Shown here: positions 32,216 through 48,367 of the stretch, one piece after another
Numbering within the stretch: the stretch's first letter is position 1
Layout: every line of letters begins with the position of its first letter
From: Mycobacterium seoulense
GTDB taxonomy: Bacteria; Actinomycetota; Actinomycetes; Mycobacteriales; Mycobacteriaceae
Length of the DNA: 64,000 nucleotides
Reading direction: 5' to 3'
NCBI RefSeq assembly: GCF_010731595.1
Contig: NZ_AP022582.1
Coordinates: 1,240,001-1,304,000 of the forward strand
Notes under the pieces: generated by a model
Database searches by the model: none
Told to the model about the DNA's origin: nothing
The model's input: only the letters and a program-made list of their open reading frames with translations
Program-made: the position numbers and the translations under genes

Positions 32216-32292
32216 CGGGCTGTGGCGCAGTTTGGTAGCGCACTTGACTGGGGGTCAAGTGGTCGCAGGTTCAAATCCTGTCAGCCCGACCA
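32216..32292 (+). tRNA. tRNA-Pro (anticodon GGG)
   Basis: A full cloverleaf is readable. The acceptor stem CGGGCTG (32216-32222) pairs with CAGCCCG (32282-32288), the discriminator is A, and CCA is encoded at 32290-32292. The D-arm GCGC...GCGC, the anticodon stem CTTGA/TCAAG around loop CTGGGGG, and the T-arm GCAGG-TTCAAAT-CCTGT are all present. The anticodon is GGG, reading CCC/CCU proline codons. It is the integration target of the island: its 3' half plus 6 downstream bases is duplicated at 48779-48829. Confidence 0.95.
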
Positions 32293-32298
32293 GACAAG
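32248..32298 (+). repeat. attL: 51-bp direct repeat within tRNA-Pro
   Basis: From the CT of the anticodon loop through the tRNA 3' end and the following GACAAG, 51 bp are identical to 48779-48829 in the same orientation. This is the classic footprint of tyrosine-integrase insertion into a tRNA 3' half: integration restored an intact tRNA at one end and left a partial copy at the other. Confidence 0.93.
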
Positions 32299-32474: not shown

Positions 32475-33662
32475 TCAGAGACCGAGTGAGGCGCTGAGCC
32501 CGTCAACCGCTGCCCGCGCCGAATCGTCGGACGTGTGCCCGTAGATGTCGCCAGTGATCGCGATTGACAATTGCCCGAGCAGATCGGCGACCGCCTTGAT
32601 GTGGACGCCAGCCTCCAGCCAAGCCACCGGGGCGCTCTGCCTCAGCGTGTGAACGTCGGCCTCAACCCCGGCGGCCTTCGCGGCGACCTCGATGGTGCGC
32701 AGGAGGTTGCGCGGATCGACCGGCTTACCCAATTCGGTGGTGAACACCAAGCCGCTGTTTCCCGCTGATTCGCCGCCCGCAGCCGCTCAGCCGCCTGGAC
32801 CGCCTTGTTGCTTGTGGAGCCTCGCAACAACCGCGGGGGAGACCGGCACCGTTCGCCGCGACCGCACTGTCTTGGGGGTGTGATGACCAGCTGGCCGTCC
32901 ACCCTGCCGACCGTGGCAAGCACCTTCAACACGCCGTAGTCCAGATCGACCCGATCCCACCGCAGCGCCAAGACTTAACCCCGACGCAACCCGCTTGCAG
33001 CAGCGCATCTTGGTACCGCGACCCCTCGGCGGCGGCGAGCACCTTCGTCACCGCGTTGCGATCCAGATGCTTCGCCTCGGTGCGCTCCACGCCGGGCCAC
33101 TTGACGACGACTGCAGGATTCTTCGCTAGCAGGCCGTCGCGCACCGCGCCGTCGAGGCCCGTCCGCAGCACCGTGTACACCTGCCGGATCGTCGAGTCGG
33201 ACAACGCCCGCACCGGATCACTAGGATCGCCGTCGGCCTCGTTCTGGCCCGGCGCGCATCGACAACACCAGCTTCTCAATATCTGACGGCTTATCTGACG
33301 GCCTCAACTTATCCAGTCGGATCGCGCCGAACGGATCGGGTTCGAGATGCCGCCGGGACAAGTTGGAGTACAGCTCGCGGGTGGCCGGCTTGCGGGCGCT
33401 GGTCCCGAGCGTGGTGGCACGCCAGTGCGCCGGCCACGCCCCGACGGGCATTGTCGCGTCGCGAGCCGGCGCTCCGGACTCGATGCGCTCGCGAGCCTTC
33501 TTGAGCTTGTCGCGGGTGTCGGCGCGTGTCGGCCCAGACACCCGCACCCGCTTCGTTACGTCGTCGGGATCGGTGTAGGTGAACGCGCCGGCGTACCCGG
33601 CGGGGCGACCGTCGCGGGTACGCTTTGTAGATCGAGCCTTCGCCGTTCGCGTTCTTCGCCAT
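32475..33662 (-). pseudogene. Decayed phage-type tyrosine integrase
   Basis: Pieces of one integrase of about 390 residues lie in order but in changing frames. The N terminus MAKNANGEGSIYK starts at ATG 33662 (good GGGGCGGGCG site), then KRTRDGRPAGYAGAFTYTDP, the core-binding ALSDSTIRQVYTVLRTGLDGA, LALRWDRVDLDYG, and the catalytic end HTLRQS ... LLGQLSIAIT ... IYGHT. About six frame changes are needed (near 33620, 33255, 32975, 32875, 32810 and 32760). The box-III GH histidine is also Gln, while the tyrosine (codon near 32543) remains. No intact product is possible, so the island has probably lost self-mobility. Clustered sequencing errors are the alternative. Confidence 0.85.
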
Positions 33663-33964
33663 ACGCCCGCCCCTGATGTAATTTGCGTTACTGAGATCAA
33701 GTGGTCGCCCTTGGCGGAATGGACATGAACGAGATGGAACTCTCACGAGGCGAGATCCGCGCCGGCCTTCTCGGCATCGTCGGGTTCCTGCGGCTCGGCG
33801 CACTGGTAGCTAAACAATCCCCGACTCCGTGAAGGACCTGCGTCCGCAAACGTTTTTCAGGAAGTGGAGGTCTCACCAACTTCCGAGGTGCTAAAGAATG
33901 CCCCGCGCACGAATATCGATTGGCGAGGGCTGGTGCTCTGGAGTGCCCCGCTGCAGCGGATGCG
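33663..33964. other. Gap between integrase remnant and defence operon, with a possible tiny ORF
   Basis: The gap contains one plausible rightward short frame, ATG 33719 to TGA 33832 (37 residues, start MDMNEMELSRGEIRAGLLG), which could be a remnant of a small regulatory or excision gene, but I recognise no family. The integrase promoter should lie at 33665-33720 on the minus strand. Downstream of the large ATPase stop (33965) I see no clear hairpin terminator. Confidence 0.3.
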
Positions 33965-36900
33965 CTATTGAAACATCGCCGTCTTGCGCGCCTGCGGTAC
34001 ATCAGCTGTTGCGACGTAGGCTTGCCCGACTCCGAGTTTTTCGACTTCGACGCTGAGATCCTGCCCGGCGCGGCCGCGAAGGTATCTGGCGACCGACTTA
34101 CTTTCTGGGTGGTTCGTCCGGAAAACGATCTTCATTCCGGCGTTGCCCAGCACGTCGCGGTGGAAATCGGACAGACCCTGGCTTGCCACGACGACGACGA
34201 CACCGTACTTGCGGCCTTCTTTCATCAGCTTGGGCAGCGTGACGTCCTTAGCGACGCGATGTGCCTCATCGAGGACGATCGCCAGCTTGAGCGTGCCGTC
34301 CTGCGGCCAAGAAAACATGTCTCGGTAAACCTTACGCAACAAGAACGAAGTGGCTGCGATCTGAACTTCCTCCAACACCAGCTTGCTCAGATCCACAACC
34401 ATCCCGGCTTGGCGCGGGTTGAAACCGCCTGACGCGCTTTCGTCGAACAGCCCAAAGTCAGTGAGCGGCCGTACGCGTTCCCGTGCGTTTTGCGCACCGC
34501 GCGCACGTCGCTCAATGTCCTCCAAAGCGGTAGCGAACTCCGTGAGAGTCGGCACTCGCATTTCGCCGATAGCTAGCTTGTAGACCTCTTGGAGGGCCTT
34601 GTAGACATTGCTGCGTTGAATCTCGCCCATGGATCCGACGAACTGGATGACCTCGGCGAGCTCCCAGGCTGCTTGATTAATCTTCGCAGATTCATCGGAG
34701 GTGAGAGCGTCGAAAGGTGTGAACGGCAGCCCGGTCTCGGCGCGTAGCACTTGCGCATTGGCCGGGGGATTGGCGGCCATATCCCCGTGAAAGTCCATGA
34801 CGAGCGAAGGCAATCCCTGCCGCGCCAGCTCCCGGATGATCAGCCGTGTCGTTACCGACTTGCCTTGGCCAGGGATGCCAACGATGAACGCGTGAGGGCT
34901 GCCCTTAATGCTCGGCTCCCAGGTGACAACGGTACCTGCAGTGTCCTTGCCAATCGATACCTCGACGTTGCGAACTCCCGTCCCCTCCTCCGGCGCTTCG
35001 GTATGCGATTCGGCAGCCTGGTCGCCGGCACCCCCAGTAGACGCCTCCGCCTTGCTTGGTGGCCCCACCGGCTTCACCTCGGGGCGTTGCTCCGCGGCGC
35101 CGGCATCATTCTCCCGATTCAGCTCGTCGTTTACCTGGTCACTTTCAGGCTCGTGCTTGTCGTCGGGCTCAGAGCTAGGCACAGACTCGTAATCATCTGA
35201 CTTCGAGTACCTTTCATCTTCACCGATGCCTGATTCCGCACTTTGGCCGTCGTTGGATTCTGCCGTTTCGGCGGTCGGTGATATCGTAAAGCCCAGTCGG
35301 CCAAGGTCGGAGGCAGTAAGCACGGAGATGGGAATGCCGCGATGTTTGGCTGGGATACCCTCGGCCCCAGTCAAACTGATGACGTAGCCGTGCATCAGTA
35401 TTTCGACGTCCACGCCTCCTTCTACGAGGCTGTCGATGTGCTTGTGGGTTTCTGCAACTTTGTCGGAAGCGATGAGCCCATTCGTCACGGCGCGGTCGGC
35501 ATAGTAGTGCAGCAGTCCTGCGAGTTGGGCGCGTTGGAGTCTAGCGTCGATACGTGGCGGGTCGGTGGCGAAATAGCGTTGCTCTAGTAGGTCTCGGGTA
35601 TTTTCGAGCTGGTCAGCGATGCCATCGGCGAGCTCGGCGGGAAGGGCCGCGTAGCGTCTGGATTTGACTTCGACGCATTCAATGCTGAACTTGCGTGGGC
35701 TGACGCGCACGATGAGCATGTCGCAGCGGCGGCCCGTTTCGTTGCCCGGCGCGTTTCGGCCGAAGATTTCCTGATGTGAGTCGACCGGCACAATGATTGC
35801 GCCGTCTAGCTTGTTCTGACCGCGCAGGTGTGCCACCAGCGCTGCCAGACTTACGGATTCGCGAGCGAAACCTTCACTACTTTGCAGGCGCAGTATCAGT
35901 CGCCCTGAGACGGTCATCAGGTCATCAAGCACCTGGGTTGAGCTAGCCTCGAGGGCATCAAGTCCGAGGTCGGTCATCGCGTTCTTCAGGATTGAGGTCA
36001 CCTCTGCACGATGCGATGTGGTGACTGTCAGCCGATGGCTCATCCCGTCGATGAAATCCGGCGCGTAATCAAGGATGTAATTGGTGGTGCCTTGGCGGAA
36101 GTGTCCACTTTCGTAGAAGTTGAGGCCAACGAAGCGGTCGAGGGTAAGAACCCAGTCTGATCGTTCGTGCAACACCCTGATGTCGTCGAGGGTGTCACCG
36201 GTGACCTCAACACGCAGCGCGGGGGGCCCGTCGAGGCCAAGGGTCGCGCCTGCCGCACTCTGATGAGAGTGGTGACTGGCGACGAGGTAGGAATTGTCAC
36301 CAGTGGTGCGCGGGTTCAGCGCTGGAGACACCGTCCATCCGCGTTCGCCGTCCGGCATATTGGTGGTGACCAGAGGGGACAGCAGGTCGTCGAGGGAAGC
36401 GAATCTCTTCAGAGCCGCCGGCGGTGTTGGCGCCTTCTGCAGATTGCTGATCCCGGTGGCAAGCGCGACGTGAATTGACTCTGGGTCGCTGACGATTCTG
36501 TCCAGCGGGCGCAGTGACGCTCCAATGGGTGGAAAAAGCGGACTCTGTTTGGCTTTTCGGCCGCCCGTCTCGGCGGTGTCGCCGGTCTGATCGGCCGATC
36601 CCGCCCCTGTCGTTTGTCCGTCGCGCGCAACTTGCAGACGGGTGAGCGGCGCCAGCGGCTCGGCGTAGCGGTCACGCTGTCCGTAGGCAACGACCTCGAG
36701 CCGCAGACTGTCGTCTTGGGTCCGTTTGTAGAAGGCGGCGAGGGCATCTGCGAGAACGGCGCCATCTCCAGGATGCATAGCTGCCAAACGGATTGCTCTT
36801 GGGTCGAGATGCGCTTTGCGGTACTCGATGAGTCGATCGGCGATCATCGTCGCATCCGAGGACATCGACGCAGACTGACGGATAAGGCCGAACACGCTGC

Positions 36901-38962
36901 TCATCGTTGCCGCGAGGACCTCCGGCGCCGGGTGACCAACGGGAAGTAAAAGCCCTAAGCCAAAAGTCAATTCGTCGAAGTAGACGTTTAACTCGCGATG
37001 GGCGGTCGCCACCGTGAAAGGAATATTGATCGGCGCTATTCGGGTTAATCCATCGAAGTCGATCAGGTTTTTGCGCTCAGCGGCAGTGGCTGCCCGCTGG
37101 ATGAGATCCTCGCCCCAGTTGCGGCTGAGCTCGTCGTAAGCGGCTAACCAGGCTAGACGAATCGGGTGCAGTGGTAACACCACAGTGGCTCGTACCGAGC
37201 CGGCTGCGGCGCTTCCCACCGCGAGCTCAATGGTGTCCAGGCGCTGAAGTACTTCCAGCGCATGGCCTTCCGCCGCGTCAAGAGCACGTTTGTAGGACTG
37301 CAGATACTCCTGGACGGTCGCTCGGCCGTGATCACTCCACGGAAACACTTCCGGAACGTCGCGGGGTGCCGCAGTGACCAGCAACTCCATCACTTGTTGG
37401 CGTTTCTTGGCCAATGCCGGCGGCAACTCGCCGCGCAGCGGCTCGAAGGCTTCGGCTTGCAGCGCCAGCCCATAGGGGGACTCGGCACTGTAGCCAGTAA
37501 TTGTTGGATCATTCGTGATCTGTCTTTGCAGCGCGACCGTCGTCGCATTTGCGGGGACCTGTACGCTTCGCGATCCGCCGATTCGCAGACAGAACACCTG
37601 GCGATTCCACTCCCAGACGGGATGGGTTTCCTCGAGGGTGTTGGCGCCGTTGGATACTGCGCGCAGGCGCGCCACGGCCAGACTGTGGGCGGTTGCAGAC
37701 GAACGGGTTAGTTCCAGTGGTTGAGGATCCTCGATGATTACGAGTTCGAATGCTTCTGACTCGGTCAGTGCCGACTCAGGAAGCTCGACGGGCTGACCGT
37801 CGGCGTCGAGGGGGAGCACCTCCACGACAAATAGGCGGCCGCCGGTGATGTCGTCGCTTGCAAGGTCTAGTTTCAGTGTCGCGCTACGTTTCGTGCCTGC
37901 GACCCGTGTCTCGACCAGAGCGGCCTCGCCCTCTTCACGGAGATCGTCTGGGTGTACGAGGCGCAACAGCCACCGGTGCACGCGTTTGGTCTTGGTGGGC
38001 GTGGTGCGCCACTTGATCAACACCTTGCCCGTTGAATCCTCTGGGATCTCACAGACCAGGTTGTCGTCGACCAGAACCAGCCCGGTGGACTTGGCTACCG
38101 TTCCTGTCGGGGAGCGAAAGGGCAGCACTTCGAGATCGTCGAGATCGGAGTCGCTCTCCGCCTCAACGAGTTTGAACTGGTCGAACTTTACGCCGATATG
38201 CTCGGCAATCGCCTTCGTCCACTCTCGTGCGTCGTCGAGGTGATCTTCCCGGTCGGTCAACACCCGAAGGATTTGGTCAAACTGGCGACCGGGGGCCAGG
38301 CGAGTCTGGCGCAAGCGATCGTCGATGGCATGCCCAGCCGCAGCCGGGTCGATAACCTTGCGGACAAATGCGTCGTTATCGCGCAGACGCCCCTTGGCTG
38401 CGTCGTCGTCTCCACCGTCAGGCACCAACCCGACGTACCAGAGGTACTGACCGAAGGGTTGGAGGGGGTTGCGGTCGATAGATTCGAGGAATTCCAACCA
38501 GTACTCGATCGGAGTTCGGCCGCGGGTCAGGCGAAGTAGTTCGTTGGCCGGAAAGTCGGGTCGTGTGGCGCGAATGCGATCGATTGCACGGTCGGCCGCA
38601 GCCTCAAGGAGATCCGCGTAGGGCAAACGTTGAAAGGCATTGTCGAGTGAACTTGCTTCGCGCGCCAGAGTCGGGGGTACCAGGAGAATCAAGATGGCTC
38701 CGTGCTGATCGCTAAGAGCGACGTCGTTGCGTAGCCCGACAGCCTCCTCAATGGTGACACGTCCTTCACCACCGACCTGATCCAGGACACGAACCTTCAC
38801 CGGTGTCTGAAACTTGCGCTCACTCAGCACGTCGGTGACGGCAGCCTGCAGCTCCATAGCCTCGTCGGCGGTGAGATCGTCAACGCGCAGACAGTGGCCG
38901 GGTTTGGCCGTCGTGATAGCCGAGAGAAGAAGCTCAGATAGCGTCTCAGTGCGTGGTGTCAT
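33965..38962 (-). CDS. Large PD-(D/E)XK plus HerA/FtsK-type ATPase, MAD8/DptH-like (1665 residues)
   Basis: This is the last gene of the operon. The C-terminal third is a HerA-like motor: Walker A GIPGQGKSVTT (about residue 1360), Walker B LAIVLDEAHRVAKD (about 1564), then ASQGLSDF and RTNHPESKSVARYLRG. Around residues 1075-1100 a nuclease-like pattern RCDMLIV ... ECVEVKSRR fits PD-(D/E)XK (Asp, then E-x-K). A low-complexity acidic/Pro-rich linker (about 1240-1330) joins them. The first 1000 residues are unassigned. Size and layout resemble MADS protein MAD8 and DptH of phosphorothioate-dependent restriction. It overlaps the preceding gene by 4 bp. The likely role is DNA translocation and cleavage during phage restriction; that is inference. 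Confidence 0.8.
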   Translation of the reverse strand: MTPRTETLSELLLSAITTAKPGHCLRVDDLTADEAMELQAAVTDVLSERKFQTPVKVRVLDQVGGEGRVTIEEAVGLRNDVALSDQHGAILILLVPPTLAREASSLDNAFQRLPYADLLEAAADRAIDRIRATRPDFPANELLRLTRGRTPIEYWLEFLESIDRNPLQPFGQYLWYVGLVPDGGDDDAAKGRLRDNDAFVRKVIDPAAAGHAIDDRLRQTRLAPGRQFDQILRVLTDREDHLDDAREWTKAIAEHIGVKFDQFKLVEAESDSDLDDLEVLPFRSPTGTVAKSTGLVLVDDNLVCEIPEDSTGKVLIKWRTTPTKTKRVHRWLLRLVHPDDLREEGEAALVETRVAGTKRSATLKLDLASDDITGGRLFVVEVLPLDADGQPVELPESALTESEAFELVIIEDPQPLELTRSSATAHSLAVARLRAVSNGANTLEETHPVWEWNRQVFCLRIGGSRSVQVPANATTVALQRQITNDPTITGYSAESPYGLALQAEAFEPLRGELPPALAKKRQQVMELLVTAAPRDVPEVFPWSDHGRATVQEYLQSYKRALDAAEGHALEVLQRLDTIELAVGSAAAGSVRATVVLPLHPIRLAWLAAYDELSRNWGEDLIQRAATAAERKNLIDFDGLTRIAPINIPFTVATAHRELNVYFDELTFGLGLLLPVGHPAPEVLAATMSSVFGLIRQSASMSSDATMIADRLIEYRKAHLDPRAIRLAAMHPGDGAVLADALAAFYKRTQDDSLRLEVVAYGQRDRYAEPLAPLTRLQVARDGQTTGAGSADQTGDTAETGGRKAKQSPLFPPIGASLRPLDRIVSDPESIHVALATGISNLQKAPTPPAALKRFASLDDLLSPLVTTNMPDGERGWTVSPALNPRTTGDNSYLVASHHSHQSAAGATLGLDGPPALRVEVTGDTLDDIRVLHERSDWVLTLDRFVGLNFYESGHFRQGTTNYILDYAPDFIDGMSHRLTVTTSHRAEVTSILKNAMTDLGLDALEASSTQVLDDLMTVSGRLILRLQSSEGFARESVSLAALVAHLRGQNKLDGAIIVPVDSHQEIFGRNAPGNETGRRCDMLIVRVSPRKFSIECVEVKSRRYAALPAELADGIADQLENTRDLLEQRYFATDPPRIDARLQRAQLAGLLHYYADRAVTNGLIASDKVAETHKHIDSLVEGGVDVEILMHGYVISLTGAEGIPAKHRGIPISVLTASDLGRLGFTISPTAETAESNDGQSAESGIGEDERYSKSDDYESVPSSEPDDKHEPESDQVNDELNRENDAGAAEQRPEVKPVGPPSKAEASTGGAGDQAAESHTEAPEEGTGVRNVEVSIGKDTAGTVVTWEPSIKGSPHAFIVGIPGQGKSVTTRLIIRELARQGLPSLVMDFHGDMAANPPANAQVLRAETGLPFTPFDALTSDESAKINQAAWELAEVIQFVGSMGEIQRSNVYKALQEVYKLAIGEMRVPTLTEFATALEDIERRARGAQNARERVRPLTDFGLFDESASGGFNPRQAGMVVDLSKLVLEEVQIAATSFLLRKVYRDMFSWPQDGTLKLAIVLDEAHRVAKDVTLPKLMKEGRKYGVVVVVASQGLSDFHRDVLGNAGMKIVFRTNHPESKSVARYLRGRAGQDLSVEVEKLGVGQAYVATADVPQARKTAMFQ

Positions 38963-40662
38963 TGTGTCTCTCCAATGAGCAGCGGGTTGAGGACAACCTG
39001 AGCACTGAAGTCGTCACTGAGGCCGTCGAAGACGCCCAGCAGCTTGAGCCGGCGCTTGAAGGCGTCAAAGTTATCGCTCGCTGCGGACCGCGCGGCCACC
39101 GTATCTAATTCCGGTGGTGGCTGGTCGATGAGAAGCCCGAATCGGTCGGCGAGTTGGACCAAGACATCGCTGAGCATCATCTCGCGGCGGGCCCTCCCAT
39201 GATCGTCGGTGAACACAATGCCCAAAAGTGCCGTCAACAGGTCGTTTCCAGGCGCATAGGCCCAGGTCTCGCGGCGCCGCGAGTCTCCGACCAGCATCCC
39301 GTTAGATCGGTTGAGCCCCCCGGTGTCGCGGAACCAGCTCAGCGCGGCATGCCTAGCGCGAGCTTTGGTGGCTTCGAAAAGCGCGGTCGTCAGACGTTCG
39401 AGGGCTGGGCGCGTGGGATCGGCAAGTCCGGCCAAGAACGCGACTGTCTCCTCGTCCTCGGCGCCGTCGTTGGCTCTGCGAACTGCCTGCAGGTCCTGTT
39501 TGAAATATGGTTCGAGATCGGCGTTGTCTCGCAGCTCAGCCAGATACTGGAATCGCTGCGGCCCAGACCATTCTTCGTAGTCTTTGGCCAGCACTTCGCT
39601 GGTCTCGGCAGCTCGCCGTACCGTCTTGAGCACCAACCGATCCCGCAGACCGGTGTGGATGAGCCGCAGATCGCGCTGGACGCAGGCGCGTGCGAGTTCA
39701 CGCGAGTCCGAGGTGGCGTCACCAGAGAAGTCAATGTACTCGTCGAGTGAATTGGCGGCCACACTGTTCTCCATGTCAGGCGGCAGCTCATGGTGCTCAA
39801 GGAGGTGATGGATCGCCCTCGAGGTCCGCAACGGCAGCTGGAAAAGGCGGAACCCCAAGATCGCGGTGAGGTGTTGGGCCGTCTGCAGCGGGGTGGAGTG
39901 ACGATAGGTCACCAGGTACGTCACCACATCGCGACCCAGGGGGGAGGCCGCCGCCGGTACCGCGGGATCGGTCCGGTAGCGCGCATCGCGGCTTTTAGCT
40001 CCCTTTTTGACGGTCTCATCCCGCGCCGAGACGGCCTCGAACCCCTCTAAGAACAGCAGAGTCAACAGAGTGGAAATGTCGACCTCGGTGTGGCCGTCGT
40101 ATTCGGGCGCCCACTGCGGTGGGTCGGTGATTTTGACGCCATCCCCGACGGACTCTCGAACCATTTCGCGAAGGACTTGCATGGCAGTGCCGTTGCCAGC
40201 GAGGAGGCCCTGCTCTTTGCGTCGCTCGACCTCTTGAAGCATCTGGGCGTATGTGACGCTGTCGGCCTGTCGGCTGCGGCGCCGATCCGGGAAACCCGCA
40301 CGATATGCCGCGAGGGTGCGTGCCCGAATAAAGTCCATCTTGTCAACACGTTGGGAGAGGCCGGACCTGCCGAAGGCCACCACCGAGGAGCGGAGCCAGG
40401 CGTCGATGACGTCTTTGCCCATCGAAGTATCAAAGCCGATGATATTCTCCTCACGCCCCAGCAGCCTGGGTAGGTAGATGTCCTCGTAGGCTTTCGCCGA
40501 GAAGTCCTTTAGCGCCGGGGCGTGTCGGCCGCCCTTGATTGCGGACTCGTATATGTGTGGCAGCAGCCGATCAACCTCGATTGAGTTCAGCTCGACCAGG
40601 TTCAGCTCGGTGAATACGAAGCTTCTCAGCTCCTTGGGCTCTTTGGGCAGGCTGATTTTCAT
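38959..40662 (-). CDS. 567-residue defence-operon protein, MAD7-like
   Basis: I see no catalytic motif, signal peptide or membrane helix. The protein looks soluble and largely helical. Its C-terminal 110 residues (YAPGNDLLTALLGIVFTD, MMLSDVLVQLADRFGLLID, FKRRLKLLGVFDGLSDDFS) look like winged-helix-type modules that could bind DNA or bridge partners. It overlaps its upstream and downstream neighbours by 4 bp each (ATGA), so the three products are probably made in stoichiometric amounts. Gene order kinase, this protein, then HerA ATPase, and the size, match MAD7 of MADS; DptG of the phosphorothioate system is an analogous middle subunit. The name rests on position and size more than on motifs. 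Confidence 0.7.
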   Translation of the reverse strand: MKISLPKEPKELRSFVFTELNLVELNSIEVDRLLPHIYESAIKGGRHAPALKDFSAKAYEDIYLPRLLGREENIIGFDTSMGKDVIDAWLRSSVVAFGRSGLSQRVDKMDFIRARTLAAYRAGFPDRRRSRQADSVTYAQMLQEVERRKEQGLLAGNGTAMQVLREMVRESVGDGVKITDPPQWAPEYDGHTEVDISTLLTLLFLEGFEAVSARDETVKKGAKSRDARYRTDPAVPAAASPLGRDVVTYLVTYRHSTPLQTAQHLTAILGFRLFQLPLRTSRAIHHLLEHHELPPDMENSVAANSLDEYIDFSGDATSDSRELARACVQRDLRLIHTGLRDRLVLKTVRRAAETSEVLAKDYEEWSGPQRFQYLAELRDNADLEPYFKQDLQAVRRANDGAEDEETVAFLAGLADPTRPALERLTTALFEATKARARHAALSWFRDTGGLNRSNGMLVGDSRRRETWAYAPGNDLLTALLGIVFTDDHGRARREMMLSDVLVQLADRFGLLIDQPPPELDTVAARSAASDNFDAFKRRLKLLGVFDGLSDDFSAQVVLNPLLIGETQ

Positions 40663-43600
40663 ACGTGATTCTCCAGAACGATTGCGCCGCTTCGTGCCGC
40701 CACTGCCTGCGGGACGCCGGCGGGGTTAACGACAATTGCTGACGAGGCGGGCTGCAACATCAGCTTGCCGGCCAACAAGGACAACTCGAGCTTGATCGCG
40801 CTAGCCGCAGCGTCGTTAATGAGTTCTCCGTCGCTAGCTCGCAAGATCAGCTCAACGGAATCTAACGTCAACGTCAGATGTGCGCGGGGATGGATGAGGA
40901 CCAGTTCATCGGCTTGCTGCTCGACGTAGGGTGACGGGGCGGGACGGCGCTCAAGGCGGAAGTCCGCGGCCGGAATTTCCCGAAGGACCGCCCAGCCATT
41001 GTTCTCTCCGTCCTGAAGGGCGAGTTTGGATCCCTCATAGCCGAAGGCGCCCAATAGACGGCTGAGCCCCTGCAGGATTCGGCTTAACAGCTGCCCGGCG
41101 GCCTCGTCACTGCCCAACGCCAATTGGAAGTCCTCTAGGTAACGATATGGCGTTGCCTCACGCTGGTGGACGGCATCACGGACAAGGTCGCCGAAGAACG
41201 CTCGTCGGTTCAGCGACTCTCGGCGATGCCACGGCTCGTGGCCGTCCGAGGCGCGATCGTCGCGCTCGAGTGCTGCTACGGGGAGCCGGGTCGGGTCCAG
41301 ATCCGCCCATTCACGAATCAGGTAGTCCGTTGACCGTGGGTCGAAGGCTAAGTCGAAGTGCAAGGCGTCGTCGCCCAAGCGCAAGTCAATCTGATTGTCG
41401 ACCGCCGCGTGCACATCGCCGCAGCCTCGATCGCCAGTGATTATCCATCCTGCGGCGGAACGGAAATCGCGGAAGGTAGCTCGGCGTTGGCGACGCAAGT
41501 GGGAGATTGTCACCAAGTCCAGCAGACGTGCCCGGCCGGTGCCAAGCAGTTGGTTTCGGTTCCTCAGGATTGGACATACTTCACGGGCATTACAGCCTTT
41601 GCATTCTGTCCACCGCGCATCGTGAGTGAAGGTGTCGAGCGTGCGTCCGGCGATGCCATCGGCGTCAGCCGCTGTCGGGGCTAGCGAGCGGCGTTTCAGA
41701 TCGACGTAGGCGACTCGACTTGCCTCGTCTGGGTTTTCGCCGTGCAAGCCTTTGCGTATCGCCTTGTGGTAGGCGGCGTATTGGTCGGAGTAGTCCTGAA
41801 TGAAGAACTGGCGCAAACGGCCGTCGTTGATCGCCAGGAGCGCGGTATGTCCGATTTGCGGCTTGGGGGCGGTCAAGGCTTCGATCACCAGCTCGTCGGA
41901 GGTCTTCCCGTCGCGTGCTTCGCTGGCGTCGTAGACCGCCGAGAAGGTACGCGTGGAGGTTTCACAGGTCCAGCCGCCAAGTCCGTCGTTGAGCATTTTG
42001 GCGCCACCGTCGACGAGGTAGCCGCGCAGCTTCTTCAGATATGAGGTTTTTCCGTCACCGGGGTTGCCGGTGAGGATCACCAGATCAAGTTGTCCGTGAA
42101 CGATTTTGGGAGTCAGCTCGGTGTCGAGCATGGTGTCGACGTAGGTGGTCTCGGCGAAGTCGGTGTCGAGCCCGCGGTTGCCGGCATTGCCCAGTGCGCT
42201 GCCGCGGTAGAGCTGGCGCAGCAAGTCGACTGTCGGATTGACTTTGGGCCTGCCGGGTTCGGCGGCAATGGGGGCGGCGCGGCGCAGGTCGTCGGCGAAT
42301 TGCCGCGCTGACTCCGGCCGTTGAGTCGCCTCTGGCGCGATAAGTCGGAAAAACTGCTCGGCGACAGCAACTCCCAGCGGACCTAGCGTCGTCATTTCCT
42401 CTTCGCTGAGCGGTCTAAGCGCCGTCTTGTCATAGTCGCCGTCGACCTCCTGATAGGGGAAGCGCCCCAGCATGCAACGAAGAAATGTCGCGCCTAGCCC
42501 GTAGAGGTCGCAGGAGGTGCTGCGTTTAGTGTGACCGGCCAACTCCGGCGCAGCGAATAGCGGTGTCAAGCCAAGTTGGGTTTCGGATTCTCTCCACCGA
42601 GCCAGACCAAAGTCGATTAGGCGAGCGCGCCCATCGGGTTCGATGATGATGTTGCCGGGGGTGATGTCGTTGTGCAGGAAATCGTGGTCGTGCATATACG
42701 TCAGGGCCTCAAGGATGTCGAGCGCGTAGCGGCGATAGTCCTCAGCTGAGATCGGCGACTTGCAGGCATTGTGGAGGCTCTCGCCGTCGACGTAATCCGT
42801 CACCAGGAACGCTGGGTCAAAGTAGATGTCCCACACCCTGGCGCAGCGATCGTGAACGATGCTGGAGGCCGCCTTAAACTCCTTCTTGGCAGTATCGCTG
42901 GGCACCGAATCCGAATACTGCTTGAGAACTCGCTTCTGGGTGGTCTTTTGGTCAGTTGCCAGCCAGGATTTCGCGAAGCCGCCCTCTCCTAAGGGGCGCT
43001 CAATAAGGTATCTGCCGGCGACGAGCTCACCCGGAGCGAAGTTTTCGCTAATAGTCATGGGCACCAATTCCGTTAGCTCAGCGATGATCGCATCGATAGA
43101 GGGCCGCTTCGCTGGATCGGGCGCGGTGCACTGACGAAGCGTGGTAGCGGCCGCTGCGAGCTCTGGTTCTTTCGGGCTCGCGTCGACGCTGGGGGCGGCG
43201 TTGGGATCGGCATGTAGCCACCACAGCAGGCACAGCCCCAACGAGTAGACATCCGACGCGGCTGTTGCAGCGCCGATGCAGTCTCTACATTCAGGTGCGC
43301 GGAAAGGCACGCCAAGGTCGGCTAGCTCGTTGAGTGAAGCTGCCACGGTCACTTCGCCGCTGAGTTGGGCCAGATACAAGTCGGTGAATTTCACCGTCCC
43401 CTCGCCGTCGATCACCACCCTGGACGGTGCAACACCTCGGTGGACAACGCCTTCGGAGTGAATATCCTGCAAACCGCGGAACGCATCGATGAGTAAATGG
43501 ATGACATCGGCGGCATCGCTGGTGGCCGGACTGACCGGCGATGTCGGCATGGTCAGAAGCTGTACAAGGTTCTTCATTGGTTCCATTACAATGGGAACCA

Positions 43601-44411
43601 CGATCCAACGGTGCAAATCTTCAGCGAAGACAGGCTGGCTTTGAAGGGTGCGCCCGCTACGGGAGAGTTTCTCAATTGCCTTGCGCTCGCGACGAATGAC
43701 GTTGCTGGGGTCGACGTTTGGGCCCCACCCGTCCATCGGATAGCAGCGCAGGAAGACGAGGTTGTTGACATCGTCGTGGGCGGCGAATACCCGTGCGCGC
43801 CCGAGGGGTGCGACTTCTTGGACGACCCGGTAGGCGCCGATTTCCGTCGGGACCTCGCTTCGTCCCTTCCACCCGTCGAGGTAGGCGATCGTCGACTCGC
43901 GGGCACCCTGCAGCGCAGAGACTGCCGCGGCATCCTCGGCTTCAAGCGCTTGGGCCGCCTCAGCCAGTAGCACCACCATGTCGGACTCTGGGCCGGCCTC
44001 CGACCAGTCGACTTGCACGCCGGGATAGGACAGCACGACGTGGCTTGTGACCAAGCGGCCCCTCTTCGGATACCCGGACACCTTGTTCCGCAGCAGCCCG
44101 GCGAGTTTGCGTGCCAAGAAGGACACACGATCGGTAGGGTTCTGACGGGATTGCTTCTTGACGATCCATGCGCCGGGAGTGACCTTGATCGACGGGCCCC
44201 AGTGTTTGTCCTCTAGGACGAAGATAAGATTGCTTCCGATGACGGTGAGATCGAGGTCATCGTGTTCTTGGGTCGGCAAGGATCGGTTCGCGATCACCAC
44301 CCAGTCGCCGGGGAGCTGATCCGCCAGCGTTTCGGCGGTCAATTGCTCACCAGGACCACGGTATTCCCCTACGACACGCAGCTCAGCCACTGGCAGCCTC
44401 CTCGTAGTCAT
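40659..44411 (-). CDS. NERD-pseudokinase-Ser/Thr kinase-P-loop ATPase fusion, MAD6/PglW-like (1250 residues)
   Basis: Domains run in this order. A NERD nuclease-like domain spans residues 10-130, with D-x-D at 52-54 and E-x-K (EDK) at 67-69. A degenerate kinase fold follows at 190-450 (HRG instead of HRD at 324-326; TDL instead of DFG at 343-345). An intact-looking kinase lies at 465-715: G-loop GEGGFAKS 475-482, lysine 497, HND 580-582, DFG 600-602, APE 621-623. Then comes a P-loop ATPase with GNPGDGKT 782-789 and a CxxC...C zinc-like knuckle at 937-946. PglW of BREX type 2 and MAD6 share the NERD plus kinase theme; the C-terminal ATPase recalls DptF. It overlaps the helicase gene by 29 bp and the next gene by 4 bp. 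Confidence 0.85.
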   Translation of the reverse strand: MTTRRLPVAELRVVGEYRGPGEQLTAETLADQLPGDWVVIANRSLPTQEHDDLDLTVIGSNLIFVLEDKHWGPSIKVTPGAWIVKKQSRQNPTDRVSFLARKLAGLLRNKVSGYPKRGRLVTSHVVLSYPGVQVDWSEAGPESDMVVLLAEAAQALEAEDAAAVSALQGARESTIAYLDGWKGRSEVPTEIGAYRVVQEVAPLGRARVFAAHDDVNNLVFLRCYPMDGWGPNVDPSNVIRRERKAIEKLSRSGRTLQSQPVFAEDLHRWIVVPIVMEPMKNLVQLLTMPTSPVSPATSDAADVIHLLIDAFRGLQDIHSEGVVHRGVAPSRVVIDGEGTVKFTDLYLAQLSGEVTVAASLNELADLGVPFRAPECRDCIGAATAASDVYSLGLCLLWWLHADPNAAPSVDASPKEPELAAAATTLRQCTAPDPAKRPSIDAIIAELTELVPMTISENFAPGELVAGRYLIERPLGEGGFAKSWLATDQKTTQKRVLKQYSDSVPSDTAKKEFKAASSIVHDRCARVWDIYFDPAFLVTDYVDGESLHNACKSPISAEDYRRYALDILEALTYMHDHDFLHNDITPGNIIIEPDGRARLIDFGLARWRESETQLGLTPLFAAPELAGHTKRSTSCDLYGLGATFLRCMLGRFPYQEVDGDYDKTALRPLSEEEMTTLGPLGVAVAEQFFRLIAPEATQRPESARQFADDLRRAAPIAAEPGRPKVNPTVDLLRQLYRGSALGNAGNRGLDTDFAETTYVDTMLDTELTPKIVHGQLDLVILTGNPGDGKTSYLKKLRGYLVDGGAKMLNDGLGGWTCETSTRTFSAVYDASEARDGKTSDELVIEALTAPKPQIGHTALLAINDGRLRQFFIQDYSDQYAAYHKAIRKGLHGENPDEASRVAYVDLKRRSLAPTAADADGIAGRTLDTFTHDARWTECKGCNAREVCPILRNRNQLLGTGRARLLDLVTISHLRRQRRATFRDFRSAAGWIITGDRGCGDVHAAVDNQIDLRLGDDALHFDLAFDPRSTDYLIREWADLDPTRLPVAALERDDRASDGHEPWHRRESLNRRAFFGDLVRDAVHQREATPYRYLEDFQLALGSDEAAGQLLSRILQGLSRLLGAFGYEGSKLALQDGENNGWAVLREIPAADFRLERRPAPSPYVEQQADELVLIHPRAHLTLTLDSVELILRASDGELINDAAASAIKLELSLLAGKLMLQPASSAIVVNPAGVPQAVAARSGAIVLENHV

Positions 44412-45999
44412 CGGGCCAGCTGTATCGCGCCACGTCCTTCTCGTCGGAACTGAGCCGTGTAAGGAACTTGTTGTCGCGCGTGTAGGTGATGATCAAGTTG
44501 TCCATTGCGCGTGTCGCCCCGACGAAGGCCACCCGAGCACGCCGCAAAGTTTCTGGATCGGAGGCGTCGGGGTCTGGGAGTGCCTCCAGGCCGAATAGAA
44601 TGACCACCTTGAACTCGTAGCCTTTAGCCGAATGCACTGTGAGCAGCTTCACCGTGTTGGAGAAGAGGTCGAAGTCGCTCTTGTCCTTGGGGTCCATTGC
44701 GCTGTAAGGGATCTCGTACTCGTCGAGTGCGCGTTTTAGGCGCCCGTAGGCGCCGCGGTACTGGGTGACCAGGATGCCGATGTCGCGGGGCTCTAGACCA
44801 CGATTGGCTAGCATGGTGGCGGTTTCGCAGGCAACGCAATTGGCTTGTTCGTCCCAACTTGCGGCCCACACCAAATCCACTGGGGGACCCTCGGGCGCGT
44901 CGTCAAGACCGACGATGGCGAACGCGGGGTCTAGGTTCTGCACCGCAGAGAGGATTTGTCTCGTACTGCGGTACGGTCGACGCAGCTCCAGGTGCTCGGG
45001 GTGGATCTTCCGCAGGTACTTCTCGGGGTCGCCTTCCGTGTAGAGGGCCTGGGCATGGTCCCCCGCCAGTAACATGCCGCCGCGGCCGGGCCGCAGGAGG
45101 GCATGCGCTAGCTCGATCCAGGCTGTCCGGAAATCTTGGACCTCGTCGATTAGCACTGCATCAAAGGACTGAGGCAATCCCGCGTGTTTGGCGGCTTTGA
45201 GTCCCGCGGAGACCACGTTGTCGTCGGAGTAGGAGAACCGGATGCCGAACTCGTGGGCGATTTCCCAAACGCGGCTCACCTTAACGTTGGGCAAGCCGGC
45301 AACCAAGCGCCGAAAGTAGGGCACGAGTGTCTTGTTGTAGCAGAGCATCTGAATGCGCCAGTCGGGATGCTCGGTGGCGAGTCGGCGGGCCCGCGCCGCC
45401 AGCACCAGCGTCTTGCCACTGCCGGGCGGCCCCGTCAGCAGAAGCGCGTCGGCAATTTCTCGCTCGGCGATTTGGGCTTGTTGCTGGTCGAGCACGACCC
45501 GCAGGGCGGCGCGATCGTCGGCACCCTCCTGAGAGATGCCGCGCCGCAACTTGGCCGTGAATACGATGCTGGGGAAAAGCGTCGCTCGGACTTCTTCGAG
45601 AGCGTGTGGATCCGGTGTCTTTGTCGGGATGAGGTCGAGCCAACGCCAGTCACTGATTTGCGCGACGGGAACGAGTACCCGGCCAGCCACCGATCGGGCT
45701 GTCGTTGACAGGCCGTTGCCGACCGCAAGCACGCGCGCAATCGGCAAGTCCTCATCGGGCTGGGTATCCGCGCGGAACGCTTCGATGCGGCGGTTGAGCT
45801 CGACAAATTCCGCGCGAGCCTCGTCATCCACTGAGCGGTGAACATCGACCGCAATAAGGCCGCGGGTGGAGTCGACAAAGACGAGATCGGGATACGCCGG
45901 CGACGTGGGTGGAGCGATCTCAACAGGGCAGTGTTGATGGCCAAGGGAGGCCCGTAGGTCGGCAACAAGGGTTTCGGCCGTGTCGCTGTTATGCCTCAT
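44383..45999 (-). CDS. UvrD/PcrA-like SF1 helicase with N-terminal nuclease-fold region (538 residues)
   Basis: This first gene of the defence operon has SF1 motifs: Walker A GPPGSGKT (190-197), DEVQD (285-289), LLAGDHAQALY (310-320), YRST (343-346), TVHSAKGYEF (454-463) and VAFVGATRAMDNLI (490-503). The N-terminal region contains PDLVFVDSTRGLIAVDVHR (37-55), which has the spacing of a NERD/PD-(D/E)XK core, but the usual E-x-K is D-V-H, so cleavage is doubtful. ATG 45999 has a near-perfect GGGGGGAGGAG ribosome site. The start of the kinase gene lies inside its end (29-bp overlap), showing one transcription unit. It probably unwinds or remodels invading DNA. Confidence 0.88.
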   Translation of the reverse strand: MRHNSDTAETLVADLRASLGHQHCPVEIAPPTSPAYPDLVFVDSTRGLIAVDVHRSVDDEARAEFVELNRRIEAFRADTQPDEDLPIARVLAVGNGLSTTARSVAGRVLVPVAQISDWRWLDLIPTKTPDPHALEEVRATLFPSIVFTAKLRRGISQEGADDRAALRVVLDQQQAQIAEREIADALLLTGPPGSGKTLVLAARARRLATEHPDWRIQMLCYNKTLVPYFRRLVAGLPNVKVSRVWEIAHEFGIRFSYSDDNVVSAGLKAAKHAGLPQSFDAVLIDEVQDFRTAWIELAHALLRPGRGGMLLAGDHAQALYTEGDPEKYLRKIHPEHLELRRPYRSTRQILSAVQNLDPAFAIVGLDDAPEGPPVDLVWAASWDEQANCVACETATMLANRGLEPRDIGILVTQYRGAYGRLKRALDEYEIPYSAMDPKDKSDFDLFSNTVKLLTVHSAKGYEFKVVILFGLEALPDPDASDPETLRRARVAFVGATRAMDNLIITYTRDNKFLTRLSSDEKDVARYSWPDDYEEAASG

Positions 46000-46547
46000 T
46001 CACTCCTCCCCCCGGGAACAATACTGTGAGTGGTTCTGGTACACCGGCGAAACAATTAGGTGACATCGAAACCAAGTGGCGCGCTAGACGGCTGACCTGG
46101 TCGAGCGTCGCCAGGTGTCACGGTAACCAACCGCGCTGACATCAGCGGCCAACGCGGACCGCGCCGCGGTTCATGAAGTGCCGTGCACGCCGGGGCCTAG
46201 CAAACTTGGTGTGGTCGATGAAGCGAGGGTGTCGCACGCCGAGATCCGTCGCGCCGTCCGGTCGTCGCCGCCCTAGTGAACGGTTGCGATGTGACATTGC
46301 CTCACGGACTGTGGCCGAGGCCGGAAGTTTCACGACACGCAATGCCTTCGGAACTGTCGTTAAATGACTGTGTCCTAGCTAGTTGTAGCCGGGCGCTGGA
46401 AAAAAACCCCGGGGGTATATGTCGCCTATGCCCGCGAGAGGTGGGCGACCAAACCGGGGGTCACCCCCCAGGGCGCGCAGTCGCTGGAGGCCCTCGAGAG
46501 GTCTGTTTGTGCTTCGACAGGCGCCTGCCGTACATAGGATCCGGTGC
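46000..46547. other. Divergent regulatory region between the defence operon and the GIY-YIG gene
   Basis: This 550-bp region must carry the promoter of the 12-kb operon (ribosome site at about 46001-46012) and that of the rightward nuclease gene. Short frames on both strands (for example about 46142-46342 minus) are arginine-rich, lack ribosome sites and resemble nothing I know, so I leave them uncalled. A run of A followed by CCCCGGGGG near 46400-46416 is noticeable but forms no clear terminator. No methyltransferase or HTH-regulator gene is present here. Confidence 0.4.
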
Positions 46548-47069
46548 GTGGAAATGCCGCCCAAGAATCTTGATGAGGATCCGCCGGATCCTGATGCGGA
46601 TGCGCTTGAAGGTCTCAAGAACGGACCTCGTTACCCGTTTACGGAGTCGCCCAGGCGTCACATCAAGATGGACGTGCGCGCTGGGGTCTACACGATCTGG
46701 CGTGGCGACGAGTTGATTTATGCGGGCTACTCGGGGCGTGACGGCACGAAGAGCGGTCCGGCCGGCCGACTCTCCGCGCATAGGAGCGGGCAGCGGTCGG
46801 GGGACAAGTTCTGTGTTTATGTTTTCGACCGCTTCATCCTGCCGAAGTTGACTGCAGACGAGATTAGGCGTGCGGCGGCAGGGGATCTGAACTTGGACGA
46901 GATCATCCGGGCTTTCATTGCCGAGGAGTTGGAGTACCGATATGTGCCGCGTGACAGTCAAATGGCGGCTGAAGCTCTTGAGCGGCGGGTCATTCGTGGG
47001 GAGCTTGGATCTAGGCCGCTGCTGAACTCGATCCGGGACGATGAGGGGGACACGGGCGACGCTGGCTGA
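46548..47069 (+). CDS. GIY-YIG nuclease family protein, Eco29kI-like
   Basis: The protein is about 173 residues. The core has GVYTIWRGDELIYAGYSGR (the GIY and YIG elements appear as GVY and YAG), the following arginine/histidine segment GRLSAHRSGQRSGDKFCVYV, and a C-terminal EELEYRYV, LERRVIRGELG, PLLN series typical of Eco29kI-like GIY-YIG endonucleases. GTG 46548 or ATG 46554 fits; the longer frame from 46419 adds an Arg/Pro-rich stretch that looks non-coding. It is divergent from the defence operon, and no cognate methylase gene is nearby. It may be an accessory nuclease of the island or an orphan restriction enzyme. Confidence 0.75.
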   Translation: MEMPPKNLDEDPPDPDADALEGLKNGPRYPFTESPRRHIKMDVRAGVYTIWRGDELIYAGYSGRDGTKSGPAGRLSAHRSGQRSGDKFCVYVFDRFILPKLTADEIRRAAAGDLNLDEIIRAFIAEELEYRYVPRDSQMAAEALERRVIRGELGSRPLLNSIRDDEGDTGDAG

Positions 47070-47155: not shown

Positions 47156-47434
47156 ATGGATGTGTCTATCGGTGGCTCATCCACCGATTCAACTGCCAAA
47201 CCCAGGTGCGTGATACTGGATCGAGCCATGCGGCGCGCACTGGGTACCCGACCGCTGCCTCTACTTATGTCGGTGCTGGGTCTTGGCACACCCGATGCCG
47301 TCGTTCTTGAGAGATTCATCGCCGGCGGGATCACGGCGAACCAACTCAGCCCATTCTTCGCAGGAGGGACTACAGTAGTTCTGTGGGAACCAGCCAGCCA
47401 CTTGCCGAATTCGCCGGGCTTCAAGTGCGGATAG
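47156..47434 (+). CDS. Hypothetical protein, 92 residues (uncertain)
   Basis: The frame starts at ATG 47156 with an AGGGG sequence a few bases upstream and ends at 47434, overlapping the DUF2283 frame by about 50 bp. The product has LLMSVLGLGTPDAVVLERFIAGGITANQLSPFFAGG, which could be helical. I recognise no family, and codon bias is only moderately coding. The overlap suggests it may be translationally linked to the DUF2283 gene, or be spurious. Confidence 0.35.
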   Translation: MDVSIGGSSTDSTAKPRCVILDRAMRRALGTRPLPLLMSVLGLGTPDAVVLERFIAGGITANQLSPFFAGGTTVVLWEPASHLPNSPGFKCG

Positions 47435-47736
47435 ACATGGACGCCAACGCGGCGTACGTCAGGTTTCGGTGTGCTCCAGTAGCTCAGACCAAACGGTTTG
47501 CGGATTCCGAGAACGTTCTGGTTGACGTTGATGCGCAAGATCATTTAATTGGCATTGAGATCATCGGCTTGCAGACAGACATCCCGATCGAAAAACTCTC
47601 TCAGGCCTTCGGCTTCTCCGAGAACACTATCTACGCGCTCAAGGAGATTCAGTATTCGCTGCACCAGGGGACAGTCATTTCCGTTGGTTCAGACGGAGGA
47701 CTTAGTACTGGGACGCTGCCCTGGAGTAAACGGTAA
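47383..47736 (+). CDS. DUF2283-family protein
   Basis: This protein of about 117 residues has the DUF2283 core DMDANAAYVRF ... VLVDVDAQDHLIGIEIIGL, then a helical HTH-like tail (IEKLSQAFGFSENTIYALKEI) that could bind DNA. GTG 47383 has AGGAGGG 14 bases upstream; a GTG or ATG slightly downstream is possible. DUF2283 proteins often sit beside DUF4258 proteins in toxin-antitoxin-like pairs. Here the DUF4258 gene is the convergent neighbour, with stops 8 bp apart. Confidence 0.7.
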   Translation: MGTSQPLAEFAGLQVRIDMDANAAYVRFRCAPVAQTKRFADSENVLVDVDAQDHLIGIEIIGLQTDIPIEKLSQAFGFSENTIYALKEIQYSLHQGTVISVGSDGGLSTGTLPWSKR

Positions 47737-47744
47737 CCCCGGTT

Positions 47745-47978
47745 TCATTCCCAGTAGGCAGTCACAATTTTTACTGGGTCAAGAGCGACGCCTGGACGTT
47801 CCGCAATGACGTTTAGAATTCTCGTCCCAACCCCTACATAGCCGATGTAACGGACGGTGGTGTCTGTACCGCCGGGCTGCGAGTCATGGAAGTGCTCTAG
47901 CACGGACCGAACGTCGTCCTCCGTAATATCGCGACAGGCCATTTGTTCACGTGCATGAACCGTGAACCTCGGTATCAC
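47745..47978 (-). CDS. DUF4258-family small protein, toxin-like
   Basis: This 77-residue protein matches the DUF4258 pattern: FTVHAREQMACRDITEDDVRSVLEH at the N terminus, VRYIGYVGVGTRILNVIAE in the strand region and the final KIVTAYWE. The fold is RelE/BrnT-like by family, often toxin-like, usually paired with DUF2283 or HTH antitoxins. Its ATG overlaps the stop of the DUF6941-like gene by 4 bp, so those two are an operon. The DUF2283 gene converges on it. Confidence 0.72.
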   Translation of the reverse strand: MIPRFTVHAREQMACRDITEDDVRSVLEHFHDSQPGGTDTTVRYIGYVGVGTRILNVIAERPGVALDPVKIVTAYWE

Positions 47979-48367
47979 GGTGAGACGGCCTCGAAAGCGA
48001 GTGTCCTCGCGTGCTCTCCGTCTATCGAGATCTCAATCCGGAAGAGTCCGTGGGTTGATAAGGGCACCCCCGTCCGGAGAGCGAACAGAATGCCAACTTT
48101 GCCGTCATATACCTGGTGGCCATCTGTTCGAAGCTCGCTTTGCCAGGTGATCTTCGTGCTGTCATCTGGAGCGACAATCTGGATCGCGAGGTCGACAATT
48201 CCGGCTTCTACAGGTGCGCGGACCCTGCCGGCGACGGCGAATTGGAACACGGCTGGAACTGGGGTGGTGACCGCGATGAAGCTAGCGTTTACTGCCGTGA
48301 GCTTGCCATCTATGACCTGCGCAAACTCGGCAAGATAGGCATAATCAAGTTCGGCCACGGAGCGCAA
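47975..48367 (-). CDS. DUF6941-like hypothetical protein
   Basis: This 130-residue protein of beta-rich composition has a family-like start (ELDYAYLAEFAQVIDGKLTAVNASF) and a C-terminal THGLFRIEISIDGE strand. This resembles DUF6941 proteins, which have no known function. It is co-transcribed with the DUF4258 gene through a 4-bp overlap. Its start lies about 410 bp from the right att site. Confidence 0.6.
   Translation of the reverse strand: MRSVAELDYAYLAEFAQVIDGKLTAVNASFIAVTTPVPAVFQFAVAGRVRAPVEAGIVDLAIQIVAPDDSTKITWQSELRTDGHQVYDGKVGILFALRTGVPLSTHGLFRIEISIDGEHARTLAFEAVSP

What the first reader, a model, noticed from the sequence alone, without database searches (positions are those of the whole stretch)
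33965..45999. Four-gene nuclease-kinase-helicase-translocase operon without a methylase: candidate new defence system
Seen: four leftward genes overlap by 29, 4 and 4 bp. They encode an SF1 helicase with a nuclease-like N terminus, a NERD-pseudokinase-kinase-ATPase, a 567-residue protein, and a 1665-residue PD-(D/E)XK/HerA ATPase. Known: MADS has a kinase (MAD6), MAD7 and an ATP-binding MAD8 in this order, plus MAD1-MAD5 including a DNA methyltransferase and an S subunit; PglW (BREX type 2) and DptFGH share parts. Inference: here the effector half of a MADS/Dpt-like system stands alone with a helicase, so self/non-self discrimination must work without island-encoded DNA modification, or through a modification made elsewhere in the genome.
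Basis: partly seen in the sequence, partly recalled or inferred. Interest (0 to 1): 0.9.

Follow-up and report, generated by a model that had tools for sequence, protein, structure and literature searches.

The report
Helicase-armed standalone DndFGH defence operon
A bacterial genomic island carries a four-gene machine that looks like a DNA-cutting anti-virus complex known from systems that chemically mark their own DNA, but here no marking genes sit with it and a helicase gene has joined instead, so how it spares its own chromosome is an open and testable question.

The parts
32248..32298 (+). attL: 51-bp perfect direct repeat covering the 3' part of tRNA-Pro(GGG) (tRNA 32216-32292)
   Evidence: exact repeat, 2 copies in the window; ARAGORN; Rfam
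32480..33700 (-). remnant of an integrase-like gene (reads by eye as a tyrosine recombinase) whose frame is broken in several places; the island is probably fixed in place
   Evidence: pieces spread over frames with stops; the 159-aa piece 33221-33700 has no Pfam match; the family name is by eye
33965..38962 (-). dndH-like gene, 1665 aa: PD-(D/E)XK-type residues D1081, E1098, K1100; HerA/FtsK ATPase (Walker A 1362-1369, DEAH 1565-1568)
   Evidence: DndH 77.7 bits, mad8 73.6; residues invariant in 12 of 12; profile hits DptH 7es4, E 2e-12
38959..40662 (-). dndG-like gene (MAD7 family), 567 aa, predicted DNA-binding/target subunit
40659..44411 (-). dndF-like gene, 1250 aa: NERD (D54, E67, K69), pseudokinase (~300-450), Ser/Thr kinase with intact residues (K497, E511, D582, N587, D600), DndF/SspF core 720-1250 (Walker A K788/T789, N862/D863, C937, C940, C946, C997, H1001)
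   Evidence: Pfam; residues 720-1250 hit SspF, 63.8 bits; residue counts in 28 sequences
44383..45999 (-). SF1 (UvrD/GajB-like) helicase gene, 538 aa, with intact helicase motifs and an unassigned N-terminal domain (~1-165); first gene of the operon
   Evidence: conserved motifs; directly upstream of dndF in the 9 loci that have it
46419..47069 (+). divergent cargo ORF, 216 aa, unknown (GIY-YIG-like by eye only)
   Evidence: no Pfam match
47380..47736 (+). cargo reading frame with DUF2283 (start codon not fixed)
   Evidence: 37.5 bits, cut-off 23
47975..48367 (-). cargo ORF with DUF6941
   Evidence: 41.1 bits, cut-off 27
48779..48829 (+). attR: second copy of the 51-bp repeat, right end of a 16.5-kb island
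   Evidence: island GC 61% against 70% (left flank) and 63% (right flank)

Best explanation
A standalone, island-borne FGH restriction complex (DndFGH of the NERD-kinase subtype) with a clade-specific SF1 helicase as fourth subunit, which attacks invading DNA without a cognate modification. Shown here by sequence or structure: the F, G and H relationships, the conserved catalytic sites, the linkage and co-diversification of the helicase, and the absence of modification genes from the operon. Inferred: the complex is held inactive in uninfected cells. An infection signal (a nucleotide bound by the DndF P-loop domain, relayed by the Ser/Thr kinase, and/or a DNA end, gap or fork engaged by the helicase) switches it on. 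DndG then binds target DNA, the HerA/FtsK motor of DndH moves along it, and the DndH PD-(D/E)XK domain nicks or cuts it; the NERD nuclease is a second, possibly suicidal, effector. Discrimination would then rest on DNA state and on an infection signal, not on a mark on self DNA.
For: Identity. Catalytic residues of NERD, kinase and DndF Walker A kept in 28 sequences and of the DndH nuclease and HerA in 12. No methylase in the operon; of 31 loci whose upstream side could be read, 2 have a Mad2-like and a Mad5-like gene directly upstream and 29 do not. Helicase directly upstream of dndF in 9 of 31, Mantel r 0.91, p 0.0001, 9 loci, 4 of 4 close matches among 394 class genomes beside FGH, and 24 of the 27 closest helicases on contigs of 8 kb or more share the exact contig length of a listed F or G relative (six shifted controls gave 0 or 1). 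Neighbours of relatives include defence genes: Zac genes, ThsA, pPIWI, type III R-M, MADS genes, BREX and DISARM genes; no background rate was measured. Unrestrained SspFGH damages DNA that lacks its mark (PMC8092258, passages).
Against: No experiment shows defence by this subtype. SspFGH without its modification genes is toxic to its host, and the same paper likens this to unrestrained DndFGH (PMC8092258, passages), so a default-off state is an assumption. The F core matched SspF models only, no DndF model, and that paper finds no significant identity between SspFGH and DndFGH; calling F a 'DndF' rests on residue pattern, gene order and the wide definition in PMC10853773. The genome holds at least four DNA methylase genes elsewhere, so protection in trans is not excluded. 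The helicase is missing from the Pseudonocardia members of the clade, and contig matching found no partner for 77 of 120 listed helicases, 12 of 29 DndG and 4 of 31 DndF relatives (short contigs and capped lists account for some). The closest relatives (61-85% identical DndG) were seen only as proteins.
Confidence: 0.55

Rival explanations
1. Modification in trans: the FGH complex reads a mark made by a host methylase encoded elsewhere (for example the orphan HsdM-like gene) and cuts DNA that lacks it, like an ordinary R-M system split over the genome.
For: The genome encodes an HsdM-like N6-methylase with no HsdS or HsdR among the neighbouring ORFs scanned, a type IIG-like gene, a 928-aa type II-like methylase and a DruM-like C5 methylase. 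SspFGH uses marks (PMC8092258, passages). All nine helicase-bearing genomes hold at least one PF02384 match.
Against: No PF02384 group is shared by the nine genomes: at 30% identity the widest group covers 4 of 9, at a loose 25% cut one group links 7 of 9. Other methylase families were not searched in the relatives. DndC gave no match. An island cannot count on a given host methylase (inference).
Confidence: 0.2
2. Remnant of MADS: mad6-8 left behind after loss of mad1-5, with a helicase added.
For: MAD7 model passed (422.6 of 410 bits); MAD6 and MAD8 models match below cut-off. G895 lies on the MADS branch without a Mad2-like gene in its 19.9-kb piece, so the methylase can be missing on that side too.
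Against: The standalone loci and the MADS branch are joined by a branch of 1.77 substitutions per site. In Actinomadura xylanilytica MADS-like genes with a MAD6 of their own lie downstream of the helicase-FGH operon.
Confidence: 0.07
3. The helicase is an independent neighbour, such as a Gabija-like or NERD-UvrD defence gene, that happens to precede dndF.
For: Its best PADLOC match is a 'NERD+UvrD' model, followed by GajB models. Pseudonocardia FGH do without it. 440 relatives exist in the protein database, 120 were listed, and 77 of those 120 had no contig match to F or G.
Against: Overlapping or within 2 bp of dndF in the 9 loci by ORF calls, co-diversification, 4 of 4 beside FGH in the genome sample.
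Confidence: 0.12
4. The operon is not a phage defence but controls plasmids, conjugation or DNA repair.
For: HerA/FtsK motors and UvrD helicases serve segregation, conjugation and repair (general knowledge); PMC10853773 (section 25) suggests DndFGH may target plasmids or conjugative DNA.
Against: Patchy distribution (1 of 401 family genomes; 11 of 394 class genomes, both counting the window), tRNA-island location, defence genes among the neighbours.
Confidence: 0.1

Closest known systems
Standalone DndFGH with NERD + inactive kinase + active kinase fused to DndF (PMC10853773; abstract and sections 11, 19-22, 24 and 25 read)
   Same: Three proteins in the same order; a DndF with the same fused domains, Walker A, a conserved N-D pair and a cysteine set like the Zn insert; DndG fold; DndH nuclease and HerA.
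   Different: Those sections, and term searches of the paper, name no SF1/UvrD helicase partner; here the helicase is the first gene and marks one actinobacterial clade.
MADS (mad1-mad8)
   Same: MAD6-MAD7-MAD8 correspond to the kinase-DndF, DndG and DndH proteins.
   Different: MADS loci G152 and G728 have a Mad2-like methylase and a Mad5-like specificity subunit upstream; none here, a separate branch, and a helicase instead.
SspFGH and PT-dependent DndFGH
   Same: F, G and H relatives.
   Different: Those work with sspBCD or dndBCDE; DndC gave no match in this genome, and NERD and kinase domains are fused to F.
PglW of BREX type 2
   Same: NERD + pseudokinase + kinase N-terminal half.
   Different: The C-terminal half is a DndF/SspF core, not that of PglW; 72.6 bits against a cut-off of 990.
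Gabija GajB and NERD-UvrD helicases
   Same: UvrD-like SF1 core.
   Different: No GajA in the operon; the N-terminal domain is unassigned; operon partners differ.

Membership tests
DndFGH | F, G and H encoded together as three consecutive genes | tested here: met
   window; relatives
DndFGH | DndF core: P-loop kinase-like domain with Walker A, N in place of the Walker-B acid, ND motif, Zn insert in some | tested here: met
   SspF models (not DndF models) match residues 720-1250; K788/T789, N862, C937/C940/C946/C997/H1001 invariant in 28, D863 in 25 of 28. Whether N862-D863 is the Walker-B N or the ND motif is not settled; lid and fold not tested
DndFGH | DndG fold | tested here: met
DndFGH | DndH with REase then HerA/FtsK ATPase at the C terminus | tested here: met
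   (7es4 DptH E 2e-12); the REase is judged by residues only
DndFGH | DndH N-terminal SWI2/SNF2-like, beta-sandwich, TRD and inactive DAM domains | not tested
   colinear DndH/SspH matches at 920-1067 and 990-1322 and absence of [SDN]PP[FYW] (read from the translation) are only suggestive
DndFGH | Restricts invasive DNA | not testable with these tools
   needs phage or plasmid challenge
MADS | MAD7 family model | tested here: met
   NF047733 422.6 bits, cut-off 410
MADS | MAD6 and MAD8 equivalog cut-offs | tested here: not met
   387.2 of 460 and 28.9 of 175 bits
MADS | DNA methyltransferase (Mad2) and specificity subunit (Mad5) in the operon | tested here: not met
   the four proteins are none of these; the genome's three PF02384 places all lie outside the window, and in blastp at E 1e-20 only the Actinomadura gene matched Mad2
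PT-dependent Dnd system | DndC (PT modification) | tested here: not met
   TIGR03183: 0 matches in the genome; no control genome passed the cut-off either
BREX type 2 (PglW) | full-length PglW | tested here: not met
   NF033442 72.6 bits, cut-off 990
Gabija | GajA partner of GajB | tested here: not met
   the three operon partners are FGH proteins; ORFs listed elsewhere in the island are 216 aa or shorter

The most novel reading that the evidence does not exclude
A default-off restriction complex that tells self from non-self by DNA state and an infection signal rather than by a chemical mark: the SF1 helicase engages ends, gaps or forks typical of invading or replicating foreign DNA and licenses DndFGH, with the fused kinase and DndF nucleotide domain as the switch. 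This would be a mark-free branch of a family whose tested members, in the papers seen, depend on marks.
Probability: 0.3. Interest if true: 0.75.

Novelty: new variant of a known kind. Interest (0 to 1): 0.5.

Why it matters
SspFGH, and by the same paper's account DndFGH, harm the host when their modification genes are missing (PMC8092258, passages). Lineages that keep the catalytic residues of FGH but carry no modification genes beside them must solve autoimmunity another way. The helicase-FGH operon is compact and present in named actinobacteria (Nocardioides kribbensis DSM 16314, Kineosporia sp. R_H_3, Actinotalea sp. K2), and in Actinomadura xylanilytica it stands near MADS genes, a natural pair for comparing mark-free and mark-dependent versions. 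The MAD7 model NF047733 also passes the window's DndG, and Georgenia's relative bears a MADS name although DndF and helicase genes are its neighbours by locus tag, so MADS may be over-annotated.

Tried and rejected
Rejected: (1) MADS remnant: tree and coexistence. (2) dnd system in trans: DndC 0 matches; other dnd and all ssp genes were not searched. (3) 'Nuclease-like' helicase N terminus: no Pfam, profile or residue support, fold not predicted.

Led nowhere: single-sequence scan of genome contigs found no relative; the alignment-based one found 22. Viral contigs: none. Plasmids: none. The phage collection was not searched. PDB by sequence: none for the DndG profile, nothing below E 0.01 for the DndF core; 7es4 appeared with the DndH profile, not with the single sequence. 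Promoter scan: 1 site, 2.6 expected. Empty site: the right flank gave a strong match in two same-genus genomes, but no tRNA lay in those two loci, so none was shown. Foldseek search of the DndG model and prediction of the helicase were never accepted. Eight literature searches (open-licence PMC only): DndFGH + UvrD gave 0 papers; phrases for standalone, solo or orphan DndFGH or MAD6 gave 100 papers, of which the 15 listed were unrelated. The original MADS paper was not in any listing; its gene list is recalled and taken from PADLOC/NCBIfam names. PMC12839542 and PMC12926258: passages only.

Limits of the counts: 31 testable loci = 19 of 22 (L017, L023, L026 are fragments; L014 and L015 are near-identical) + the 11 neighbourhoods of other genomes fetched (the twelfth stretch, L050, is the window genome's HsdM region) + the window. 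The motif scans missed methylases that PADLOC found: a type III R-M beside L025, and one PglX-type and one type IIG-type match among 87 flanking ORFs, possibly the same ORF (25 of 45 families shown, 25 of 260). The Mad2-like gene of Actinomadura starts about 5 kb downstream. One search covered 41 of the 44 flanking ORFs of the eight helicase-bearing relatives; searches covered 92 and 87 of the other 129 listed. The tree used 26 of 34 loci; L011, L012, L015, L017, L023, L024, L026 and L047 were left out (split or fused ORFs, a duplicate, or a subunit missing). The state count on it is by eye: one gain and one loss of the helicase, or two gains. One search scored only the 3 best candidates in each genome, as did.
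Full report
Observation. The four ORFs, their strand and their 29-, 4- and 4-bp overlaps are as described. They lie in a 16.5-kb island bounded by a 51-bp perfect repeat of the tRNA-Pro 3' end (32248-32298 and 48779-48829), with 61% GC against 70% on the left and 63% on the right. Just inside the left end is an integrase-like gene (by eye) whose frame is broken, so the cargo is probably fixed in place. No empty site was shown.

Relatives. An alignment-based scan of genome contigs found 22 loci, 19 of them with F, G and H in the same order; by their record titles they are actinobacteria and Chloroflexota-type bacteria (phyla recalled). Whole-genome searches found DndG relatives in 2 of 198 relatives (the window and G152), 1 of 401 family genomes (the window) and 11 of 394 class genomes (the window among them). 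Of 31 loci whose upstream side could be read, 2 (G152, G728) have a Mad2-like methylase and a Mad5-like specificity subunit directly upstream; phmmer with those four proteins found no further Mad2- or Mad5-like gene in the other loci, save the start of one downstream of the Actinomadura operon. Other methylases near relatives are a type III R-M and a PglX-type and a type IIG-type match. A tree of joined F, G and H columns (26 of 34 loci, FastTree) separates G152, G728 and G895 from all others by a branch of 1.77 substitutions per site. G895 shows no Mad2-like gene in its piece, so the methylase can be absent on the MADS side too.

The helicase. It is present directly upstream of dndF in 9 loci (window, L006, L007, L008, L009, L025, L040, L041, L042), all in one actinobacterial part of the tree; its absence from the Pseudonocardia members needs one loss, or else a second gain (by eye). 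Helicase and FGH distances agree (Pearson 0.91, Mantel p 0.0001, 9 loci). At E <= 1e-70 it occurs in 4 of 394 class genomes, in each beside FGH (3 best candidates scored in each genome). In the protein database, 24 of the 27 closest helicases (48% identity or more) on contigs of at least 8 kb share the exact contig length of a listed DndF or DndG relative; over all 120 listed it is 43; from the other side 27 of the 31 closest DndF and 17 of 29 DndG relatives match a listed helicase; shifted controls give 0 or 1. Georgenia sp. 311 has consecutive locus tags 14615, 14620 and 14625 for DndG, DndF and helicase.

Self and non-self. The genome gave no DndC match and no PF01555 match, but has an HsdM-like gene with no HsdS or HsdR among the neighbouring ORFs scanned, a type IIG-like gene, a 928-aa type II-like methylase and a Druantia-type cluster with a C5 methylase. 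Across nine helicase-bearing genomes the PF02384 genes fall into many groups and none is common to all nine; other methylase families were not searched there. In Actinomadura a Mad2-like gene, Mad3- and Mad5-like genes and, about 8 kb further on behind other ORFs, a second MAD6-like gene lie downstream of the helicase-FGH operon, beyond a 1468-residue gene; the piece ends before any MAD7 or MAD8 could be read in full.

Literature. PMC10853773 (abstract and sections 11, 19-22, 24 and 25 read) reports that DndFGH is commonly decoupled from DndABCDE, that all eight genes occur in 316 taxa, that DndF may carry NERD plus inactive and active kinases, and proposes DndFGH as a standalone counter-invader system. 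PMC12839542 (passages) repeats the DndF-PglW parallel. PMC8092258 (passages) shows SspFGH without modification genes harming its host. Term searches of the first two papers found no SF1/UvrD helicase partner, and no paper in this library holds both DndFGH and UvrD.

Mechanism. Shown: gene order, relationships, conserved active-site residues, helicase linkage. Inferred: default-off complex, activation by a nucleotide or kinase signal or by DNA structures met by the helicase, DndG targeting, HerA translocation, DndH cutting, NERD as backup. The main rival is a mark made in trans.

Verdict. A real, conserved operon; a helicase-bearing variant of the known standalone DndFGH kind; not a MADS half. 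Interest lies in the testable autoimmunity question and the helicase subunit.

Noticed in passing
G000:C1:2148260-2156000 (L089): Druantia-type cluster (DruM-like C5 methylase, DruF, DruE) elsewhere in the same genome.
   Followed up: partly
G000:C1:3513928-3517167 (L088) and 5465257-5468043 (L090): A type IIG-like restriction-methylase gene and a 928-aa type II-like methylase gene in the same genome.
   Followed up: partly
L086:1619-19237 (Actinomadura xylanilytica): Mad2-, Mad3-, Mad5- and MAD6-like genes downstream of a helicase-FGH operon, with a 1468-residue gene that looks CHAT/NACHT-like by eye between them and the operon.
   Followed up: partly
L006:1605-4109, L025:2257-4656, L011:3713-6133, L016:16852-19119: Larger SF1 helicases (755-834 aa) of other subfamilies beside FGH operons; the L006 and L025 copies are 42% identical, and the one in L011 ends about 35 bp before dndF.
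   Followed up: partly
L007:4285-4359; L006:1403-1476: tRNA genes near the operon in Nocardioides and Kineosporia (tRNA-Met 220 bp from the helicase gene), hinting at tRNA islands there too.
   Followed up: no
L042:16646-19637: ZacA/ZacB-like gene pair next to the operon.
   Followed up: no
window 46419-47069: Divergent 216-aa ORF in the island, GIY-YIG-like by eye, no Pfam match; DUF2283 and DUF6941 frames next to it.
   Followed up: partly
L049 (G895): A MAD6-8-like trio on the MADS branch with an NsnC-like (Menshen) gene beside it and no Mad2-like gene in the piece.
   Followed up: partly
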